Assembly: GCF_900452515.1 (NCBI RefSeq)
Contig: NZ_UGNW01000001.1
Coordinates: 3,431,501 to 3,495,500 of the forward strand
Reading direction: 5' to 3'
Source: Legionella birminghamensis
GTDB lineage: Bacteria; Pseudomonadota; Gammaproteobacteria; Legionellales; Legionellaceae
DNA length: 64,000 nt
Shown here: piece after piece, positions 2,119-58,074 of the stretch
Layout: each line of letters starts with the position of its first letter
Position numbering within the stretch: position 1 is the first letter of the stretch
Notes under the pieces: model-generated
Told to the model about the DNA's origin: nothing
Seen by the model: the letters and a program-made list of their open reading frames with translations, nothing else
The model's database searches: none
Program-made: the position numbers and the translations under genes

Positions 2119-3415
2119 CTGATCCCCACAAAATTACCATTTTCTAGCCAACTCCTGTTCAATAAGATTTGGTAAGTTTTCATGGTCAATAACGAGCTCA
2201 TGTATCTTGTCAAATTCAACCATCAATTGTCCTAAATAGAAGTAAGAGAATACCTTTTTATCCCTGACGGTATTAGCCTGAAAAACCCTTTGATAATTTT
2301 GGCTATGGGCAATCACGCCTATTATCCAAAACATCAGCTGAACAATAGCAGCCAATAACATTTTGACCCCCCAGCGATAAATGCTTTTAGTGCTTGCATA
2401 GCGAGCTGACAAACCAAATTGATGGCTTTTAACGTCACGAAATGATTGTTCTATTTGCATTCTTTTAGAATAATAGTTCACTACTTTGGTGGCGTTAAAA
2501 GTCTCTTTAGGTAAATTCGTTGCCAATATCCATGGCTCTCGTGCCAAACGTCGGTAATGATTAGAGCCGGCTTTATCATTCCTTGGAACTCGACTCAGAC
2601 TTCTTTTTTCCCCAGGACTACGTTGTGTGGTAATAACGCGACATGCACGATTATGGTCTTTCATGATAAAGGCTTGATTGTAACTTTTCGTTTTCTCCGA
2701 TATTTGGGGGACGAAGTCTTTTACTGTAGTCCATTCTTCATCAGCGCCAAGTTTTAGCATTTTTCCTTGTCTAATCCGAGTTAACCAGAACCAGCCCAAT
2801 GACTCTATTGCTTTAAGCCAGTCTTCACCAAATCCTGCGTCCATAATAAAAATGACGGTTTTGTTCTTTGGAATACAGGGCATTAATCCCTGTAAAAAAG
2901 AGTGCGCTCGTCCAGATAATCCCCCGGAGCGAAACACTTCTCGATACAGGGGAATGCTTCTGCCTTTAAGCGCAATTTCTGCACTTAACATTTGAATATC
3001 ATGATCATCTTTTAAATAACAAAGATCGATTAACACAGGAACATCTTCTTGAAAAGCAAGGTATTGAAATAGAAAGCTGGAAAGACCTGTATAAATTGCG
3101 CCGATTTCTTCATAAAGGTGCTTGTTCCCCTCAAGGCGATCCACTTTTTTAATTTTATGCTTTAATGAAACGTCGCCAGATAATCCTTTTCCTATCGCTG
3201 TTAGAGATAGGTTTTGCTTCTTCTGAAGAGAGCAAGCCACATCCATGACCGCCTGTAAACGTTTACCATGGATAAAAGGGCACTCTTCCATCAAATGAGT
3301 ATGTAAAATATCAATAGCTTCCATCATTCATCCCAATCTGTTTTATTGGGAGGAATTAGATCATTACTCGAATTTAACTGCAATTATTTTTATCAAATTT
3401 GTGGGGATATATCAG
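2115..3415. mobile_element. Complete IS4-family insertion sequence, 1301 bp
   Basis: The left end (2115-2135, CTGACTGATCCCCACAAAATT minus its last base for brevity) and right end (3395-3415) are imperfect 21-bp inverted repeats that share CTGA and ATCCCCACAAA. They are flanked by the direct repeat TCCGCGGG at 2107-2114 and 3416-3423, an 8-bp target-site duplication. One transposase gene fills the element on the minus strand. Identical target duplications and an open transposase frame suggest a recent, potentially still mobile insertion. The boundaries are set by the repeats and by the exact in-frame restoration of the interrupted gene. Confidence 0.93.
2134..3327 (-). CDS. IS4-family transposase
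   Basis: The gene encodes a 397-residue DDE transposase that cuts and joins the ends of the surrounding element. The IS4 family signature YREK is intact near residue 285-300 (Y-S-K-R-M-Q-I-E-Q-S-F-R-D-V-K). Candidate catalytic aspartates are in VLIDLCYLKDD (about residue 95-105) and FIMDAGFGEDW (about 160-170). The length is normal for the family. The stop codon lies inside the left terminal repeat, which is typical of compact IS elements. No frameshift or internal stop is visible. Confidence 0.95.
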   Translation of the reverse strand: MMEAIDILHTHLMEECPFIHGKRLQAVMDVACSLQKKQNLSLTAIGKGLSGDVSLKHKIKKVDRLEGNKHLYEEIGAIYTGLSSFLFQYLAFQEDVPVLIDLCYLKDDHDIQMLSAEIALKGRSIPLYREVFRSGGLSGRAHSFLQGLMPCIPKNKTVIFIMDAGFGEDWLKAIESLGWFWLTRIRQGKMLKLGADEEWTTVKDFVPQISEKTKSYNQAFIMKDHNRACRVITTQRSPGEKRSLSRVPRNDKAGSNHYRRLAREPWILATNLPKETFNATKVVNYYSKRMQIEQSFRDVKSHQFGLSARYASTKSIYRWGVKMLLAAIVQLMFWIIGVIAHSQNYQRVFQANTVRDKKVFSYFYLGQLMVEFDKIHELVIDHENLPNLIEQELARKW

Positions 3416-11493: not shown

Positions 11494-11503
11494 GACAATG
11501 TCA

Positions 11504-12046
11504 ATGCATGAATTATATAAAAAAATACTAGAGGAAATTGGAGAAGATCCTAATCGAGAGGGCCTTAAGGACACTCCTAAACGCGCTGCAACCGCTTTCC
11601 AATACCTGACGAAAGGCTACAACGAGGATCTGCAGGAAATCATTAATGATGCGCTGTTCGAATCCGATATGAGTGAAATGGTGATTGTTAAAGACATTGA
11701 GTTGTACTCAATGTGCGAGCATCATCTCTTGCCGTTCCTGGGCAAATGCCATGTAGGTTATATTCCTAACGGAAAAGTACTTGGATTATCCAAGGTTGCA
11801 CGCATTGTTGAATATTTTGCCCGCCGCCTGCAAATTCAGGAACGGCTGACAATGGAAATTGCCAGCTGCATTGAATCAATCACCCGCGCCAAAGGAGTAG
11901 CAGTCGTTGTTGAAGCCAAACATTTATGCATGATGATGCGCGGCGTAGAAAAACAAAACTCGCAAATGCTAACTTCAGTGATGTTGGGCGATATGCGTCA
12001 TAATGTGAGCAGCCGGGCTGAGTTTCTGTCTCTAATCGGTAAATAA
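11504..12046 (+). CDS. folE: GTP cyclohydrolase I
   Basis: This enzyme catalyses the first step of tetrahydrofolate (and queuosine/pterin) synthesis, converting GTP to dihydroneopterin triphosphate. The zinc-binding and catalytic region [20 protein letters not shown] (about residues 69-88) is complete, and a later Cys-containing [14 protein letters not shown] gives the third zinc ligand. The 180-residue length is typical of short bacterial FolE. ATG 11504 is chosen over ATG 11498, because AGGA at 11492-11495 would be only two bases from the latter. Confidence 0.95.
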
Positions 12047-12218
12047 ATCTCCCAGCAATATCATCGTCTCTCGGTCTCCCGTGAAAGCGGGAAACCCGTT
12101 GACATCCTGTTTTATATCTGCTTTATTCATCGAACCTCAACAAGACAAATTGGATTTTTTTTGCACAATTACTACATATAATTAATAATAGGTAATAGTT
12201 ATGTTGGAGTAATGTATC

Positions 12219-12374
12219 ATGGCCAAAGTTGATAAAACCTATGCAAAAGAAAACAAAAAAATAGCCGATGAGAATCTGGAAAAATTGTCAGGCGGCCTGA
12301 ATATTCAGGTTATAGGATTTAAGGAACCCAAAAATACATCCAAAAATAAGGGTAAAAAAAAGAAAAGCCGTTGA
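12219..12374 (+). CDS. Small basic peptide with double-glycine (LSGG) leader-like motif
   Basis: This is a 51-codon gene. TTGGAG at 12205-12209 lies 9 bases before the ATG. The peptide begins MAKVDKTYAKENKKIADENL and continues EKLSGG, then a 25-residue basic tail (LNIQVIGFKEPKN... ending KKKKSR). The stretch ADENLEKLSGG matches the general pattern of double-glycine leaders (an E-L/E-N-L segment, then hydrophobic-x-GG) cut by C39 peptidase ABC transporters in bacteriocin and related export systems. A related gene lies 96 bases downstream with the same ribosome binding site layout and the same DENL..LSGG core, which argues that both are real genes. No peptidase-type ABC exporter is in the window. 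Function is unknown; secreted peptide, signalling peptide or antimicrobial are possibilities. Confidence 0.6.
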   Translation: MAKVDKTYAKENKKIADENLEKLSGGLNIQVIGFKEPKNTSKNKGKKKKSR

Positions 12375-12469
12375 TTGAATACAGGGTTGACGGATTAAAA
12401 ATGATTTCTTGTATACAATTTTGATATGGATCAAAGAATTAACAAGGTTGGTACTGGAGATAATATATC

Positions 12470-12654
12470 GTGACCAGAACACACAAAACCACCACCAAAG
12501 ACAAAAAGATTACCGATGAAAATCTGAAAACTTGTCCGGTGGTACTATGCGTACACCCAAAGCCGAGATGAAAGGCTACGTGTTTGAAGGTAACCCAAAC
12601 GCCTCTCCTTCGGGAAAGACTAAAAAAAAAGAAACGGCAAACTTCAATCAATAA
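12470..12654 (+). pseudogene. Paralogous LSGG small-peptide gene with a one-base frameshift
   Basis: A GTG start at 12470 follows GGAG (12456-12459) with the same spacing as the upstream copy. The zero frame reads MTRTHKTTTKDKKITDENLK and then shifts out of register, stopping at 12571 after 33 codons. Adding one A to the run at 12527-12530 (or a -1 shift) gives NLSGGTMRTPKAEMKGYVF and on to a TAA at 12652-12654, about 62 residues with a KTKKKE tail like that of the first copy. Either the gene is broken by a single-base loss, the base call is wrong, or translation shifts frame. The site is not a canonical A_AAA_AAC slip sequence. TTGACG (12387-12392) and TATACA (12412-12417) may be its own promoter, with long 19-bp spacing. 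Confidence 0.55.
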
Positions 12655-17762: not shown

Positions 17763-18767
17763 CTAGCGGACTGGGTGCAAGTCAACCTTGTCAAAGGTAG
17801 AATAATCCACCCGTTTATCGTCCTGATTCAAACCAATAGGCAAAACAAAACTACTCAATAGTGCACGCCAGAAATCGGAGTAAAGATAATTTTGTAAGGG
17901 ATGCTCCGCTTCTATCGGAAAGCAGGGGCCGTGATTTACTTCCAAAAGCCAGACCTTCGAATTGCAATCCACCATAAAATCCACGCCAAATAAAGCAAAC
18001 GATTTCAACCCATTGCTGGTAAATGCCTGGGGATAACGCCTTGCTAAAGCCTCAGCCAACTGGCCAATAATATGTTGTATTTGCGGATAAAGCAGGGCAA
18101 AAAACTCAAAACGATCCGTTGGAATCTGGATGACGTTACTTTCCTCTTCATGCAAATGCTCATTTGTCAAATGCGGGCGCAAATCTTCAAACCGCCCTGG
18201 GGTATAGGGATGGCGGGAAACATTAAAATACCCGCGCGGAAATAAATAAGCACCTGCATAATTACTAAGTACCAGAAACATGCGGATACTGTATTTGCGA
18301 TCATCACGCAATAAATGCGGTGGGTTAATATATTCCTGTAATACATGGTCGCCGCCCAAACGTCGATTGGTCGAAAAATGCCTTTCCAGATCACTAAGCT
18401 TGCTAAATATTTTAATGAATTGCCCATTATTTAGCAGAGAAGGCTTTAAAATCCAGACAGGTGACGGCTGCTCCAAAGCGGCCTTGTTAAGAAACTGCAA
18501 AACAAGAGGCCAGTTCTGATCGTTAATCAGGAAAGTAGGCATCATAATTTGCGGACAAAACTCTGACACCAACTCGGCCAGAGAATGCTTAAACTCCAAA
18601 CATTGGGCAGCCTCTTCATTGAATTGCAGGTTGGCATCACTAAAATTTGCCATCCACTTGAATCGTGCAGGCTTCCATCCTGCTTCAAGGAGATAATAAT
18701 TCAAATTAAAAAAAGTCGGTGATTTTGTCTCGCTAAATGTAAACCGTCCTGCTTTTAGTCTATTCAT
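17763..18767 (-). CDS. Tubulin-tyrosine-ligase-like ATP-grasp protein
   Basis: The 334-residue protein resembles the TTL/TTLL family of ATP-grasp ligases, which join an amino acid to a protein carboxylate or side chain. Matching elements in order are WILKPSLLNNGQFIKIF (ATP-binding lysine and loop, about residues 125-141), VLQEYINPPHLL then RKYSIRMFLVL (about 165-190), and FALFGVDFMVD with WLLEVNHGPCF (metal-binding E-x-N, about 270-297). The glycine loop is weaker than in eukaryotic TTLs. The start codon overlaps the end of benE (ATGAATAG), so translation is probably coupled. The bacterial substrate is unknown; a host protein target is possible but there is no evidence of secretion. Confidence 0.78.
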   Translation of the reverse strand: MNRLKAGRFTFSETKSPTFFNLNYYLLEAGWKPARFKWMANFSDANLQFNEEAAQCLEFKHSLAELVSEFCPQIMMPTFLINDQNWPLVLQFLNKAALEQPSPVWILKPSLLNNGQFIKIFSKLSDLERHFSTNRRLGGDHVLQEYINPPHLLRDDRKYSIRMFLVLSNYAGAYLFPRGYFNVSRHPYTPGRFEDLRPHLTNEHLHEEESNVIQIPTDRFEFFALLYPQIQHIIGQLAEALARRYPQAFTSNGLKSFALFGVDFMVDCNSKVWLLEVNHGPCFPIEAEHPLQNYLYSDFWRALLSSFVLPIGLNQDDKRVDYSTFDKVDLHPVR

Positions 18768-20827: not shown

Positions 20828-21769
20828 ATGTCTGGAACTACCCAATCAAGCAGTGCAGAAACTGTTGAAACTGTTTCAACCCCTTCTGCCGCGAGCCCCG
20901 CAACCCCTGCAAGCACCGCGCCGGCTGCTACTGCGCCAAGCGATACTGATACTGCTAATAAAAAAGCGGCTCAGGATACTGCGGCTAATGCCGCGATCGC
21001 CGCAGATGCGGCTAAAGCAAAAACCACGATGGCCGCAGCTCAGCCTGCAGCTGCAGCAGCAAGCAAAAAAGAGGAGAAAGCAGCCCCCGCCGAGGAAGAA
21101 TCCTTTTTAAAGCAGGACATCGATCCCAATGAAGATGCCTGGCTAAAAATCATAAAAGAATGGATAAATCTTATTAATGAGCTGAATGAACAATTTACCA
21201 GTTACGCCGGGAACAAACTAAAAGGTGCCGCCATGGGTGCCAAAGAACTTGGCGGTCAGCTTTTTGAGGGGCTGAAATCACAAGCCGCCAATGGCGTTAG
21301 CACACTGAAGGATTATTTCAATCCCCCTCCGAAAGCAGCAGAGGTTCCTCCCGGCCATGAAGGAAAACCTTCACCTGATGCGGGATTAGCACTTGATGCG
21401 GAGCATAATATTTCAGCAGCCATACCGAAGCCGGAAATGGAAGCTCCTGAAGATATTCTGGCCACTTCTCATTTATATAATCCCAGTGCCGATTATTGGG
21501 ATACTGGAGATGAGTTGGACCTGGGCGAAACTATGGCACCGAAAGCCGATATGCCTTTAGCCAGCCCTGAAATGAGTGCCCTGCCAGAGTCTCCCCAAGC
21601 TGTCCTGGGCAGTTCGTTTGCGGACAATGCTGATTTCCAGCTGGGGGAACTTAATCCCACCCCTGAAGAAACTGCTTCTGTAATGACCACAATGGACGAA
21701 GGAGATAAACTCTCCGCAATGGCAGATGACGGTGAAGAACTAAACCAGGAAAATCTAATGGCACCTTAG
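20828..21769 (+). CDS. Effector-like protein, short paralog of tandem pair
   Basis: The 313-residue protein is not assigned to a known family. Residues 1-90 are low-complexity Ala/Ser/Thr/Pro. Residues 90-165 form the region shared with the next gene (FLKQDIDPNEDAWLKIIKEW, then LINELNEQFTSYAGNKLKG and YFNPPP). The rest is acidic and loosely structured, with the partly shared PEDILATSHLYNP and an acidic C-terminal tail (DDGEELNQENLMAP) that resembles the E-block signal of Dot/Icm substrates. It lacks a signal peptide and membrane spans. Role in translocation is inferred from composition and the Legionella context only. Confidence 0.72.
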   Translation: MSGTTQSSSAETVETVSTPSAASPATPASTAPAATAPSDTDTANKKAAQDTAANAAIAADAAKAKTTMAAAQPAAAAASKKEEKAAPAEEESFLKQDIDPNEDAWLKIIKEWINLINELNEQFTSYAGNKLKGAAMGAKELGGQLFEGLKSQAANGVSTLKDYFNPPPKAAEVPPGHEGKPSPDAGLALDAEHNISAAIPKPEMEAPEDILATSHLYNPSADYWDTGDELDLGETMAPKADMPLASPEMSALPESPQAVLGSSFADNADFQLGELNPTPEETASVMTTMDEGDKLSAMADDGEELNQENLMAP

Positions 21770-21792
21770 GCGTCATGCATCAGTGAATTAGG

Positions 21793-21836
21793 CTATGCTA
21801 TGATAATCTATGAATTTTATTTGATAAGATAATACC
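21793..21836 (+). promoter_or_regulatory. Upstream element shared by the two paralogous genes, copy 2
   Basis: CTATGCTATGATAAT starts at 21793, 44 bases before the ATG at 21837, matching the element in front of the first paralog. It implies separate transcription of the second gene although the genes lie only 67 bases apart. Confidence 0.5.
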
Positions 21837-24065
21837 ATGTCCGGATCAGCACCCTCTAGCAGCACAGAAACTGCAGAATCCACCCCCACTTCTACTCCGA
21901 CCTCTGCACCGCAGAGCTCGGCACCAGCCCCTGCACCTGCAACCACAGCGGCACCTGCTGCGGCCAAGGCGACAATGGCGCCTGTCGCTCCAGCTAAAAC
22001 TGCTGCAGCAACCAAGGAAAGTACGCCGCCGCCAGCTGAAGATGATTATTTTTTTAAACAGTCGATAGATCAGAATGATGAACCCTGGCTAAAAATGGTT
22101 AAGGAATGGCTTAACCTGATTAACGAGTTGAATGCCCAATTTACTGACTTTGCAGGGGAAAAACTAAAAGGGGTTGCCCAGGGTGCCCAAGCAGTTGGAA
22201 GCCAAGCTTTTGATGCGGTAAAAAATTATTTTAACCCTCCGAAACCGCAAGACGATCTGATGCGGCGAACTGCTCGTCTGGAGACCGCCAGCAAGCCGAC
22301 ACGGGATGAAGGGCTTGATCTCGATGGAAGCGAGTTAACAGGCGAAGCAAAGCCAAAACCAGCCCCGGGTCTCAACTTAAGCGAAATGAGCACTGTCTAC
22401 GAATCACCCGAAGATATAGTCGGCAGCTCTTTCCTCTATAATCCTGAATTACAGTTAGAGGCTGACGAACCACTCGATGTAGGGGCAAGTGCTGCACCCA
22501 AAATTGATCAGGATTCAGTAATGCTTCACGACTCCGATCAACAGATTACGGTTGAACTGACTGCCGTAAAATTACAAAACTGGCTCAATAAAGTGGACGG
22601 CACCCAGACTTCTGAAACCGATAATCCTTCAATCACCCTGGGTAAAACAGGTTTGCAGAAAGCACGGGATGTCATTAATTTCCTTAACACACCAGCAGGC
22701 GACACAACCAAAGAAAGAATTGCAACGGAATTGATTCAGGCGGTAGAGCGAGAGAAGCAAAACGAAGAAATACAAAGAGAGCAGCTTCTGCAGGAGCAGC
22801 GGCTGGCGGCTTTTCTCATCCATGCGGCCCGCCAGGATGCTGATTTGATTGCCGAAAGGAACATTCGAATACAGGAAGATATTGATCAACGGGTACAGGT
22901 GCAGAAACAGCAACAGCTTGCTGACTCCATGTCACCTGATGAAAAAGCACAAAAAGAAGCTGATCTGGATGCGATGATTGGCGCTTATGACGAGCAGATT
23001 GAAAGCTTGCAAAAAGCAATTGCTGAAAAAGATAAAGAAATTGCAGAAGTTGATAAAGAGATTGAGCGCCTCGAGCAAAAGGGTAAATCTATCGATGCAA
23101 AACACAACACATATCAGGATGGAGTTAATCGGGCTAAAAGTTTTAACCCCGACAATCCAGACGACAGGGCTGCGATGAGGAGCCGTATCGGGGCAATGAG
23201 GGCTGAAGCTGAAAAAAACGAGCAAAGCGCCTTTGAGAGAGTGGATAGAGACGAAGACGGGGCTCTGGAAGACTTGCAAAAGGCAAAAAATAATATCATG
23301 GAAATTGCAGCACTGGAAGAAATGCTGGATGTCTATGAGGGAAAACAAACGGCTTATACAGCAGACGGTACCCAGACCTCTAATCCCGATGAATTTGCCT
23401 ATCTGGCTCCCAGCAACAAAAGTATATTAAAAGATGATGCAGGCAATCTCTACCTGGTTAACAAAGGGGTCGCTAGTGTTGATAGTTTATCTACTGGGGA
23501 GAAACAGCAAGCGCAGGCAGATTTTCAAAGAAATAAAAATGCAATGACCAGTGTCCAGGATGTTATCAAAAATAACCGCAGCGGTGAGCATGGAATGAAT
23601 AACCAGAGCCTGGACGCCGCCCAACAAAAGAAACAGAGCTTAATGAGCGAATCCGCAGAGATGCGCATGCAGCTTCAAACAGCGCTGAAAGAAAAAGAAA
23701 AATGTCAGGATGCTAAAAATAATTTACGCAGCCCAAGCCCTTCACCTGCATCAGGAAATCAGCAGCTCTCCAAGGCGGAAATCGATCAGGCAACGTCTGT
23801 TTTTTACAAAATGCTTAATCGGGTTGCGGATAACTACAGTGATGGGGGCATGAAGGCATTACAAAATCATGTAGTGAATACTTTTGGCCAAAATCAGCAA
23901 ACCAACGCCCTGCTCCGGCAAATCCCCCAGGGCCAGCCGATTGACCCCAATAACATCAGACAGTTGACCGAGCAATTTCGCTCCTGCGGCGACGCACCTG
24001 CACCAAGCATGCAGGCTAGCGCGGAAGCTGAGCAGCAAAACCAGCAGACAGTACGGATGCCCTAA
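21837..24065 (+). CDS. Effector-like coiled-coil protein, long paralog of tandem pair
   Basis: The 742-residue protein shares its first approximately 215 residues with the preceding gene: a Pro/Ala/Ser/Thr head, then FFKQSIDQNDEPWLKMVKEW and NLINELNAQFTDFAGEKLKG, YFNPP and SPEDIVGSSFLYNPE. It then gains about 500 residues absent from the short copy: a helical region with strong coiled coils around residues 295-450 (repeated E/K/Q heptads such as IAEKDKEIAEVDKEIERLEQK), a second helical block near 590-640, and a Gln-rich tail. No catalytic motif is recognised. Architecture and head are typical of Legionella effector candidates; the function is unknown. Confidence 0.75.
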   Translation: MSGSAPSSSTETAESTPTSTPTSAPQSSAPAPAPATTAAPAAAKATMAPVAPAKTAAATKESTPPPAEDDYFFKQSIDQNDEPWLKMVKEWLNLINELNAQFTDFAGEKLKGVAQGAQAVGSQAFDAVKNYFNPPKPQDDLMRRTARLETASKPTRDEGLDLDGSELTGEAKPKPAPGLNLSEMSTVYESPEDIVGSSFLYNPELQLEADEPLDVGASAAPKIDQDSVMLHDSDQQITVELTAVKLQNWLNKVDGTQTSETDNPSITLGKTGLQKARDVINFLNTPAGDTTKERIATELIQAVEREKQNEEIQREQLLQEQRLAAFLIHAARQDADLIAERNIRIQEDIDQRVQVQKQQQLADSMSPDEKAQKEADLDAMIGAYDEQIESLQKAIAEKDKEIAEVDKEIERLEQKGKSIDAKHNTYQDGVNRAKSFNPDNPDDRAAMRSRIGAMRAEAEKNEQSAFERVDRDEDGALEDLQKAKNNIMEIAALEEMLDVYEGKQTAYTADGTQTSNPDEFAYLAPSNKSILKDDAGNLYLVNKGVASVDSLSTGEKQQAQADFQRNKNAMTSVQDVIKNNRSGEHGMNNQSLDAAQQKKQSLMSESAEMRMQLQTALKEKEKCQDAKNNLRSPSPSPASGNQQLSKAEIDQATSVFYKMLNRVADNYSDGGMKALQNHVVNTFGQNQQTNALLRQIPQGQPIDPNNIRQLTEQFRSCGDAPAPSMQASAEAEQQNQQTVRMP

Positions 24066-55800: not shown

Positions 55801-56991
55801 TTACTCGCTCCGTAAAGACATAATCGGCTCCAGCTTCGCAGCACGCCTTGCTGGATAAAAGCCAAAAAAGATACCCGTGGCTACAGAAACGGCAAAGCCC
55901 GCCAAAGGGGGCAGGCTATGGAGAATGAAGGTCCATTCACTGAAATAAGCGACAATTCTTGTGAATATAAGACCTAACAATACACCAAGGCCGCCGCCCA
56001 GAAACGAAAGCAGCACCGATTCAACCAGAAATAAATTCTGTATTTCGCTGTTCCTGGCACCGACTGCTTTACGAATTCCAATCTCTTTTTTACGTTCACT
56101 GACTGAAACCAGCATCACATTCATCACACCAATACCGCCCACCAACAAAGATATCCCGCCAATAACGCCTAAGAGCAAGGTGAAAATCTGCCCCTGGCTT
56201 TCCATACTGGCAATAATTTGCTTGGCACTTCGGGTAAACAAACTGAGCCGCGGCGCCTCTAACTCCACCTGTTGTTTGATCTGGCCAATTGCTAAATCGA
56301 TATCAGTGTCAGGCTTTAAAAGCATGACGGCATTATTCACCTTGCTGTCTTTACTGATCAAAGCAATGCCGGCCACCGGTACAATCACGGAATGGTTGAC
56401 GTCTTCATTGAAAAAGCCGTTTTCCTGCCAGCGATCCACCACCCCGATAATGGTATAAAGCGAATTGCCAATGCGAATTTGTTTTCCTATGGGATCATCC
56501 AGCGTTATCTCGCGGATTTGGCGGGCCAAATCATCTCCAATAACGCAGAAATGTTCAAAAGAATTCAGAAACGAAACAAAATGGCCGCGCGCCACTTGAA
56601 TATGAATAATATCAGCCAGACTGTCATCTGCACCAATAATAGCACTCTGTAAAACCTGGCCCTTAAAGCTCACCGGCTGATAAGCGGTGGCATAGGGGGC
56701 TATTTTTAAAATGGAGGGAACTTTCGCGGGTAAACTGCGCCAGAATTGCAAAGCTAACTCAGACTGCACACTGGACTGGCCCCGCTCTTTCTGGAACACG
56801 GTGGTGGCCAAGAGATCAGTACCCAAAGCCTTAAATTGTTCCAGCGCTTTTTCTGTCGCCAATTGCCCACAACTGATCAAGGCAACAATGGCTGCCGTTC
56901 CTACCAGCACGCCCAACACTGCAAGAAAGGAGCGCAGCTTGGAAGCGGTCAGATTAACCAGGGCTTGCTGAAAATGATTAAACCAGTTCAT
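55801..56991 (-). CDS. MacB-type ABC permease (separate subunit)
   Basis: The protein of 396 residues (from ATG 56991) has an N-terminal transmembrane helix (about residues 17-40), a periplasmic MacB core domain and three C-terminal spans. Signature regions are VGGIGVMNVMLVSVSERKKE and IGIRKAVGARNSEIQNLF (about 275-315). In E. coli MacB the ATPase is fused; here it is a separate upstream gene. Unusually, 405 bases containing MITE-like palindromes lie between the ATPase stop (57397) and this start. The gene should still be expressed if the palindromes do not fully terminate transcription. Confidence 0.9.
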   Translation of the reverse strand: MNWFNHFQQALVNLTASKLRSFLAVLGVLVGTAAIVALISCGQLATEKALEQFKALGTDLLATTVFQKERGQSSVQSELALQFWRSLPAKVPSILKIAPYATAYQPVSFKGQVLQSAIIGADDSLADIIHIQVARGHFVSFLNSFEHFCVIGDDLARQIREITLDDPIGKQIRIGNSLYTIIGVVDRWQENGFFNEDVNHSVIVPVAGIALISKDSKVNNAVMLLKPDTDIDLAIGQIKQQVELEAPRLSLFTRSAKQIIASMESQGQIFTLLLGVIGGISLLVGGIGVMNVMLVSVSERKKEIGIRKAVGARNSEIQNLFLVESVLLSFLGGGLGVLLGLIFTRIVAYFSEWTFILHSLPPLAGFAVSVATGIFFGFYPARRAAKLEPIMSLRSE

Positions 56992-57051
56992 GGAGATTTC
57001 CAATTTGTATCAGCGCGCCAACCAGCTTGTACCCCCGCGGCTTCGACCCAT

Positions 57052-57263
57052 AGCTATCTACACAAATGTTTTTCCCGCTCCGAATCCCCGCGGCTGCGAC
57101 CGCGGGGCCCATGTCTGGTGGCCGAACCTGCACTTTAAGTTTGCAATGTTGCCAAAAATTAGAGGGGGAAAAGGTACAAGACTGAAACCCTGAATAGGCA
57201 TCGTTTGGGTTCCGCGGTCGCAGCCGCGGGGATTCGATAGCTAATGCATTTGTGTAGATAGCT
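57052..57263. repeat. Best-preserved MITE-like palindromic element (212 bp)
   Basis: Perfect 17-bp terminal inverted repeats AGCTATCTACACAAATG are at 57052-57068 and, inverted, at 57247-57263. Inside are a core at 57086-57107, a spacer with TTTGCAATGTTGCCAAAAA (57140-57158) and an inverted core at 57210-57231 (one base changed). A separate core lies just outside at 57338-57359, and partial palindromes flank the unit near 57033 and 57271. No coding sequence is present. The block separates two genes of one efflux operon. Confidence 0.82.
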
Positions 57264-57396
57264 TTGAGCTCCGACCGCGGGGTCCACCACTGAATTATGT
57301 AATAGTTACAATTCTTCTTCGCGCCAAAGGGCATGGGCCCCGCGGTCGAAGCCGCGGGGATACGTGGATGCGCTGCGGGGAGACTGTTTTGAAAAT

Positions 57397-58074
57397 TCAC
57401 CCTACAATCTCCCCATCACAAAGCACGATTCGCCGCTGGCACTGGGCCGCAATTTGCTCATCATGGGTAACCATGATAATGGTGCGGCCTTCAGCATGCA
57501 GCGCCAGAAACAGATTCATTACCTCAGTCCCTGTCCTGGAGTCCAGCGCACCGGTGGGTTCATCCGCCAGAATGACCTCGGGTTCAGTCACTAAGGCGCG
57601 GGCGATTGCCACACGCTGCTGCTGCCCGCCTGATAATTGGGTAGGCTTATGCTGGGCGAATTTTTCCATTCCCACCCGTGACAGGGCAGACATCACCAGA
57701 TTTTCTGATGCCTCTGAGCCAATGGAGCGATAAGTTAAGGGTAAAGCGACATTCTGGCGTGCAGTGAACCGGGGTAATAAATTGAACTGCTGAAAAACAA
57801 AGCCAATGTTACGATTGCGGTGGCTGGCGAGTTCATCTTCTGATAAATCAGCGACCGGCTGCTGATTGAGATAATAATCCCCCTTATCGGCCTTATCCAG
57901 CAAGCCTATGATATTCATCAGGGTGGACTTCCCGGAGCCGGAGGCACCAACAATGGCAAGTAATTCGCCGCGTTTAACGGTCAGGGAAACCTGTTTGAGA
58001 ACCTGACTGCTCACTCCCCCAATGGTATAACGCTTGCATAAGTTTTGGATGCGAATCAGAGCGGAATTAGTCAT
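57397..58074 (-). CDS. MacB-type ABC ATPase
   Basis: The 225-residue ATPase has Walker A IVGASGSGKSTLMNIIG (about residues 38-54), Q-loop GFVFQQFNLLPRFTARQNVA, signature QLSGGQQQRVAIARALV (about 142-158), Walker B VILADEPTGALDSRTG and H-loop VTHDEQIA. This matches the MacB/SalX group that drives export of macrolides, peptides or lipoprotein-like substrates. It overlaps the preceding adaptor by 8 bases. Confidence 0.94.
   Translation of the reverse strand: MTNSALIRIQNLCKRYTIGGVSSQVLKQVSLTVKRGELLAIVGASGSGKSTLMNIIGLLDKADKGDYYLNQQPVADLSEDELASHRNRNIGFVFQQFNLLPRFTARQNVALPLTYRSIGSEASENLVMSALSRVGMEKFAQHKPTQLSGGQQQRVAIARALVTEPEVILADEPTGALDSRTGTEVMNLFLALHAEGRTIIMVTHDEQIAAQCQRRIVLCDGEIVG

What the first reader, a model, noticed from the sequence alone, without database searches (positions are those of the whole stretch)
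12219..12654. Tandem micropeptide genes with double-glycine (LSGG) leader-like motifs
Two tiny adjacent genes, each with GGAG at 9-10 bases before the start, encode peptides that share K-K-I-(A/T)-D-E-N-L-(E/K)-x-L-S-G-G and a lysine-rich tail. This fits the pattern of leaders removed at a double glycine by C39-peptidase ABC transporters (class II bacteriocins, microcins and related signalling peptides). The N-terminal parts are conserved while the post-GG parts diverge, as expected for leader plus variable core. Such peptides are too short for most gene callers and may be unannotated. No peptidase exporter is in the window, so export would rely on a distant locus.
Basis: partly seen in the sequence, partly recalled or inferred. 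Interest (0 to 1): 0.78.

Follow-up and report, generated by a model that had tools for sequence, protein, structure and literature searches.

The report
Legionella's scattered double-glycine micropeptide family
A tiny, easily missed gene belongs to a scattered family of short basic peptides in Legionella-type bacteria that carry the tag a known kind of exporter cuts off; the second gene beside it is a broken copy.

Summary
The 51-codon gene at 12219-12374 is real: it lies between folE and ahpC, has intact orthologues in the same place in two other genomes of its genus, and evolves under purifying selection (dN/dS 0.09-0.18). The second 'gene' (12470-12654) is broken here: leader and LSGG lie in different frames; intact copies exist in both relatives. 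A leader profile finds 102 such peptides in 24 of 143 genomes of this bacterial family (1-10 per genome) and one of 369 class-wide genomes outside it. Leaders are short, basic, and hydrophobic at -12, -7 and -4 before Gly-Gly, the residues that the C39 protease LahT150 grips. The genome has two exporters of that type. Peptides and exporters co-occur (22 of 24 peptide genomes; 39 of 143 overall), and 27 of 102 peptide genes lie within 6 kb of one. Such exporters were published for Legionella as LB2SS/LB3SS; I saw no substrate named in the passages read. Best reading: these peptides are substrates, clipped and secreted as cationic peptides. Their task outside the cell is unknown; conserved cores argue against fast-changing toxins. 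A new variant of a known kind.

The parts
12206..12209 (+). GGAG, ribosome-binding-like site of the first gene
   Evidence: sequence read directly, 9 bases before ATG
12219..12374 (+). first gene: 51-aa double-glycine leader peptide precursor, intact (stop included)
   Evidence: ORF; orthologues in G003 and G008; dN/dS 0.09-0.18
12219..12296 (+). its 26-residue leader ending LSGG (hydrophobic at -12, -7, -4)
12297..12371 (+). its 25-residue core with lysine-rich tail, predicted secreted part
12456..12459 (+). GGAG, ribosome-binding-like site of the second, broken gene
   Evidence: sequence read directly, 10 bases before GTG
12470..12571 (+). second gene, upstream piece: leader as far as ENLK, then out of register to a stop
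   Evidence: ORF; weak profile match to this piece (E 0.023)
12532..12654 (+). second gene, downstream piece in another frame: LSGG and core
   Evidence: ORF; profile match to this piece (E 1.3e-5)
11498..12046 (+). flanking gene folE (GTP cyclohydrolase I), same neighbour in G003 and G008
   Evidence: Pfam PF01227
12726..13361 (-). flanking gene ahpC-like peroxiredoxin, same neighbour in G003 and G008
   Evidence: Pfam PF00578

Best explanation
The first gene encodes the precursor of a small secreted peptide. Its 26-residue basic leader is held by the C39 peptidase of an NHLP-type ABC exporter encoded elsewhere (most likely the one at C1:64-66 kb, with its HlyD adaptor, second ABC subunit and a cNMP-binding protein) and cut after Gly-Gly, and the cationic 25-residue core is secreted, probably unmodified. 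It is one of seven intact paralogues at six places in this genome that would share one export line; the gene beside it is a broken copy. Shown by computation: a coding gene under selection, a family, the leader pattern, co-occurrence with and adjacency to exporters. Inferred: cleavage, export, lack of modification, which of the two exporters. Unknown: the task outside the cell.
For: dN/dS 0.086-0.179 between three orthologues. 102 loci in 24 of 143 genomes of the bacterial family at E<=0.001. -12 Ile/Leu/Val in 66 of 66, -7 Leu in 66, -4 Ile/Val/Leu in 65, the positions gripped by LahT150 (PMC6363468, passages). The exporter's C39 domain keeps Cys, His and Asp and is closest among solved chains to that very protease, 6mpz (E 1.5e-40). 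22 of 24 peptide genomes have a strong NHLP-type exporter against 39 of 143 overall. 27 of 102 peptide loci, in 12 genomes, lie within 6 kb of one, about 0.5 expected. The 64-kb exporter groups with exporters that have adjacent family peptides.
Against: No transcript, cleavage or secretion data. The window genes are about 205 kb from the exporter if the contig is a circle, and no family peptide lies next to either exporter of this genome. G112 and G176 have peptides without a strong exporter; 17 exporter genomes have no peptide at that cut. The association is not corrected for relatedness. The ABC subunits score below the NCBIfam cut-offs. A gene of the ATP-grasp kind lies about 3.5 kb from the 64-kb exporter in this genome (L049:3677-4621), so modification is not excluded.
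Confidence: 0.8

Rival explanations
1. The peptides are class II microcin-like bacteriocins that kill competing bacteria. Export and cleavage as in the best explanation, with an antibacterial core.
For: Double-glycine leader and C39 exporter, cationic cores (55 of 66 positive); the published name of the exporters is Legionella bacteriocin secretion systems (PMC6959600, passages).
Against: Cores are hydrophilic (23% AILMFVWC). No small conserved immunity-like gene is evident beside the window gene; its neighbours are folE and ahpC. Cores are under purifying selection between species.
Confidence: 0.3
2. The peptides are signals or surface/polyanion binders used by the producer itself or inside its amoeba host.
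For: Conserved cores between species, several differing paralogues per genome, a lysine-rich tail in 7 of 7 intact cores of this genome, a cNMP-binding protein in the exporter operon.
Against: No receptor or sensor kinase is linked to the window gene; host action is speculation.
Confidence: 0.35
3. The peptides are precursors of a modified natural product (RiPP); an enzyme encoded elsewhere modifies the core before export.
For: NHLP-type exporters usually serve modified peptides (PMC2887384, passages). An ATP-grasp gene (PF14397) lies near the 64-kb exporter in G000 and, judged by eye, in G003. A graspetide from Legionella pneumophila is reported (PMC9576775, passages).
Against: Only 4 of 66 cores hold Cys. 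Of 20 exporter-side or paralogue-side neighbours in Pfam (10, 10) none hit a family I know as a RiPP modification enzyme. The ATP-grasp gene was not seen near the same exporter in G008 (L094, by eye).
Confidence: 0.15
4. The ORFs are chance open frames.
For: They are short and A-rich, and the second is broken.
Against: Orthologues at E about 1e-20 with synonymous bias; 102 relatives.
Confidence: 0.02

Closest known systems
NHLP and N11P (Nif11) precursors with the TIGR03794/03796/03797 export trio (Haft 2010, PMC2887384, passages read)
   Same: Double-glycine leader, hypervariable cores between paralogues, several precursors per genome, same kind of exporter trio
   Different: Leaders here have a median of 27 residues and are basic, not 87 or 69 residues and related to nitrile hydratase or Nif11; no NCBIfam hit to those models; most genes are far from the exporter (75 of 102 not within 6 kb)
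LB2SS/LB3SS, Legionella bacteriocin secretion systems (PMC6959600, passages read)
   Same: NHLP-type C39 exporter with two ABC proteins at one locus, in Legionella
   Different: The passages name no substrate; sequence identity with the published proteins was not tested here
LahT/LahA double-glycine substrates (PMC6363468, passages read)
   Same: Hydrophobic -4, -7, -12 in the leader; many different cores served by one C39 protease; the exporter's C39 domain is closest to LahT150
   Different: LahA leaders are of the Nif11 type and come from a lanthipeptide cluster in Lachnospiraceae
Class II microcins and class II bacteriocins (TIGR01847 leaders)
   Same: Short double-glycine leader, small cationic precursor
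   Different: Only 3 of 13 members touch TIGR01847, at E 0.065 or worse, the window peptide not at all; hydrophilic cores; no immunity gene evident

Membership tests
Double-glycine (C39) substrates | Gly-Gly at -2/-1 with hydrophobic residues at -4, -7 and -12 | tested here: met
   window peptide Leu-4, Leu-7, Ile-12; 65, 66 and 66 of 66 family members (members gathered with a profile)
Double-glycine (C39) substrates | A C39 exporter with catalytic residues in the same genome | tested here: met
   two in G000
Double-glycine (C39) substrates | Cleavage after Gly-Gly and export | not testable with these tools
   no experiment
NHLP / N11P precursors | Long leader related to nitrile hydratase or Nif11 (TIGR03793, TIGR03798) | tested here: not met
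   26-residue leader; no hit for the window peptide at E<=10 nor for 13 members at E<=1 to these models
TIGR01847 bacteriocin-type leader | Hit above the model's cut-off | tested here: not met
   3 of 13 members, best E 0.065; window peptide none
NHLP export trio | TIGR03796 and TIGR03797 above the equivalog cut-offs | tested here: not met
   802.5 and 795.3 against 853.3; 679.2 and 618 against 709.4, though best hits
NHLP export trio | TIGR03794 adaptor above its cut-off | tested here: met
   219 and 301 against 156.2
LB2SS/LB3SS | Sequence identity with the published transporters | not tested
   an accession is named in the paper; its sequence was not compared here
Class II microcins | Antibacterial activity of the unmodified core | not testable with these tools
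   no experiment
Class II microcins | Linked immunity gene | tested here: inconclusive
   neighbours are folE and ahpC; small ORFs antisense to the pair exist and were not tested for conservation

The most novel reading that the evidence does not exclude
Legionella-type bacteria carry a dispersed set of up to ten or more largely unlinked micropeptide genes that feed one type I export line and release a mixture of unmodified peptides with charged tails, whose cores are kept by purifying selection; the set serves life inside amoebae (polyanion or surface binding, or signalling) rather than killing bacteria, which would be a new class of secreted product for this genus.
Probability: 0.2. Interest if true: 0.82.

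Novelty: new variant of a known kind. Interest (0 to 1): 0.6.

Why it matters
NHLP-type exporters of Legionella were named as putative bacteriocin exporters without a substrate in the passages I read. This gives them a concrete, countable candidate substrate family with a sequence rule, most of it away from the exporter and short enough to be missed by gene callers. Public proteomes and transcriptomes can now be searched for these peptides.

Tried and rejected
Chance ORF: rejected for the first gene. Two working genes: rejected, the second lies in two frames. Membership of the window peptide in a Pfam, NCBIfam or PHROG family: no hit; other members of A1 gave only weak hits (best E 0.05). Mobile origin: tblastn of the first peptide found nothing in plasmids or phages at E<=0.01. 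Frame change as programmed frameshifting: considered from the sequence only, not tested; both relatives have one continuous frame, so decay or a sequencing error is simpler. Papers: eight of ten searches used, read as listings; none listed a paper on these peptides; subscription papers are mostly missing from that library.

Rows dropped, weak or against: the 66 peptides include one copy cut by a locus end (L074, same gene as in L031), one from outside the bacterial family (L148, G460) and two weak ones (L143, L144). The tree holds 25 exporter rows, two of them the same gene, from the 45 loci given; rows lacking a short motif were lost, among them the G168 and G006 exporters, which have adjacent peptides (the G006 peptide at E 0.0014). 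One search also warns that long branches meet where the two groups with adjacent peptides join. The 746-bit exporter cut is mine; the next score is 641. dN/dS of the upstream piece of the broken gene against the relatives is 1.1 and 1.6 on one or two synonymous changes, of the downstream piece 0.23 and 0.14. In 1 of 3 comparisons of the first gene the core's dN/dS exceeds the leader's.

Full report
What is there. The second is not one ORF. From the GTG at 12470 the frame gives the leader as far as ENLK, then runs out of register to a stop at 12571; LSGG and the tail are in the frame of 12532-12654. In two genomes of the same genus, G003 and G008, two peptide genes stand side by side between folE and ahpC, as in the window, and there both are single open frames (folE and ahpC in the window by Pfam). 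The window's second tail also differs from the relatives' after the lysine run. So the second gene is a broken copy here, or the assembly has errors at runs of A; the genome is otherwise good (2 contigs, 99.99% complete).

Is the first ORF a gene? Split after 26 codons, the core has 0.039, 0.068 and 0.205 and the leader 0.161, 0.486 and 0.155, on few changes; the intact relatives of the second gene have 0.097 and 0.352. The core is thus the more constrained part in 3 of 4 comparisons. 'Conserved leader, variable core' is true between paralogues, not between orthologues.

How large is the family? With 13 full sequences (A1) 24 of 143 genomes of the same taxonomic family hit at E<=0.1. A leader-only profile of 44 sequences (A2; 27 positions) gives 28 of 143 at E<=0.05 and, at E<=0.001, 102 loci in 24 genomes, 1-10 per genome. 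The window genome has seven there, at six places. In a class-wide draw of 369 genomes 3 hit at E<=0.01: the window genome, one other of its family, and one outside it. Of the 66 distinct peptides read, leaders have a median of 27 residues and a net charge of +4, cores a median of 27 residues and a net charge of +3; Arg, Lys, Pro, Ser and Gly are the commonest core residues, 23% are AILMFVWC, and 4 cores hold Cys. Position -12 is Ile, Leu or Val in 66 of 66, -7 Leu in 66, -4 Ile, Val or Leu in 65, -3 Ser in 66. Members were gathered with a profile, so part of this is by construction; the window peptide itself was not.

The exporter. The genome has three matches to the C39 peptidase family. One, weak, belongs to an LssB-type protein (TIGR03375 above its cut-off). 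The other two are NHLP-type: HlyD adaptor, C39 ABC subunit and second ABC subunit side by side, with best NCBIfam hits TIGR03794, TIGR03796 and TIGR03797; the adaptors are above the cut-off, the ABC subunits below theirs. The 64-kb one also has a cNMP-binding protein in line. The C39 domains keep Cys, His and Asp (that these are the catalytic residues is recalled), and the closest solved relative of the 64-kb one is 6mpz, a double-glycine protease domain (E 1.5e-40), LahT150 by the paper's account of its structure. That paper (PMC6363468; [quoted passage not shown]

Link between peptide and exporter. Of 143 genomes 39 have a strong NHLP-type exporter (746 bits or more, my cut). Of the 24 peptide genomes 22 have one; Fisher p is 2.5e-13, not corrected for relatedness. 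Exceptions: G112 and G176 lack a strong exporter, 17 exporter genomes lack peptides at that cut. Of 102 peptide loci 27, in 12 genomes, lie within 6 kb of an exporter, where random placement gives about 0.5. In the exporter tree the 64-kb exporter falls, with those of G003 and G008, beside those of G001, G002 and G009, which have adjacent family peptides; the 718-kb exporter belongs to another branch and has a different Cys-Gly-Gly peptide next to it in G000, G003 and G008. I assign the window peptide to the 64-kb exporter by inference. The pair is about 205 kb from it if the contig is a circle, and 45 kb in G003 and G008.

Comparison outside the family. In the best 80 of a capped list of NHLP-type exporter loci from other bacteria, the A2 profile finds ORFs of 20 bits or more in two (L189, L229); the double-glycine leaders listed there are mostly of the acidic ELSDEEL kind. 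The short basic leader looks like a feature of this bacterial family.

Mechanism, step by step. A translated tiny ORF: supported by selection. Leader bound and cut by the C39 domain: inferred from residues and exporter type. Export through HlyD and an outer-membrane factor: inferred from the trio. No modification: inferred; of 20 neighbours of exporters or paralogues scanned with Pfam none hit a family I know as a RiPP modification enzyme, but other neighbours were not scanned, and an ATP-grasp gene (PF14397) lies about 3.5 kb from the 64-kb exporter, as by eye in G003 and not, in the stretch fetched, in G008. Task outside the cell: unknown. The lysine-rich tail in 7 of 7 intact cores of this genome, the hydrophilic cores and the purifying selection speak for a steady task, such as binding a charged surface or signalling, more than for a pore-forming or fast-changing toxin; this is inference.

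What is known. Haft 2010 (PMC2887384, passages) defined the exporter trio and the NHLP and N11P precursors, with mean leaders of 87 and 69 residues. A 2020 survey (PMC6959600, passages) named NHLP-type exporters of Legionella LB2SS and LB3SS as putative bacteriocin exporters; the passages read name no substrate for them. PMC9576775 (passages) lists a graspetide from Legionella pneumophila, another class. Eight searches of the open library (listings) showed no paper on these peptides.

Noticed in passing
L050:5147-5371 (+), G000 C1 about 716 kb; also L084:5303-5515 and L095:12632-12844: A different small ORF with a very short leader ending Cys-Gly-Gly and a longer, less basic core, beside the second NHLP-type exporter in G000, G003 and G008; no NCBIfam hit. 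Likely the dedicated substrate of that exporter.
   Followed up: partly
L189:6182-6580 (-), cyanobacterial MAG: An ORF near an NHLP-type exporter that repeats an SGG-ended leader-like unit and a core-like unit, as if several cores were strung in one precursor.
   Followed up: no
window 20828-24065 (+): Two neighbouring Ala/Pro-rich ORFs with similar starts; the second has a LidA long coiled-coil domain (PF18641), the first no Pfam hit. Looks like a pair of effector-type genes.
   Followed up: partly
L082:9116-9352 and 11758-11991, G000 C1 about 3.05 Mb: Two family peptides 2.6 kb apart share leader and a Gly/Lys-rich tail while the middle differs: leader, variable middle, constant tail.
   Followed up: no
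window 2134-3327 (-): A 397-aa ORF with a transposase DDE domain (PF01609).
   Followed up: partly
L050:16206-16519; similar short frames in L049 and window 56978-57400: Intergenic stretches whose frames repeat RIPAAAT/SESPRLRPRG-like words: probably a dispersed DNA repeat.
   Followed up: no
window 17763-18767 (-): A protein of the tubulin-tyrosine ligase family, an ATP-grasp enzyme (PF03133), about 5 kb from the peptide pair; also present near the pair in G003 and G008 (by eye).
   Followed up: partly
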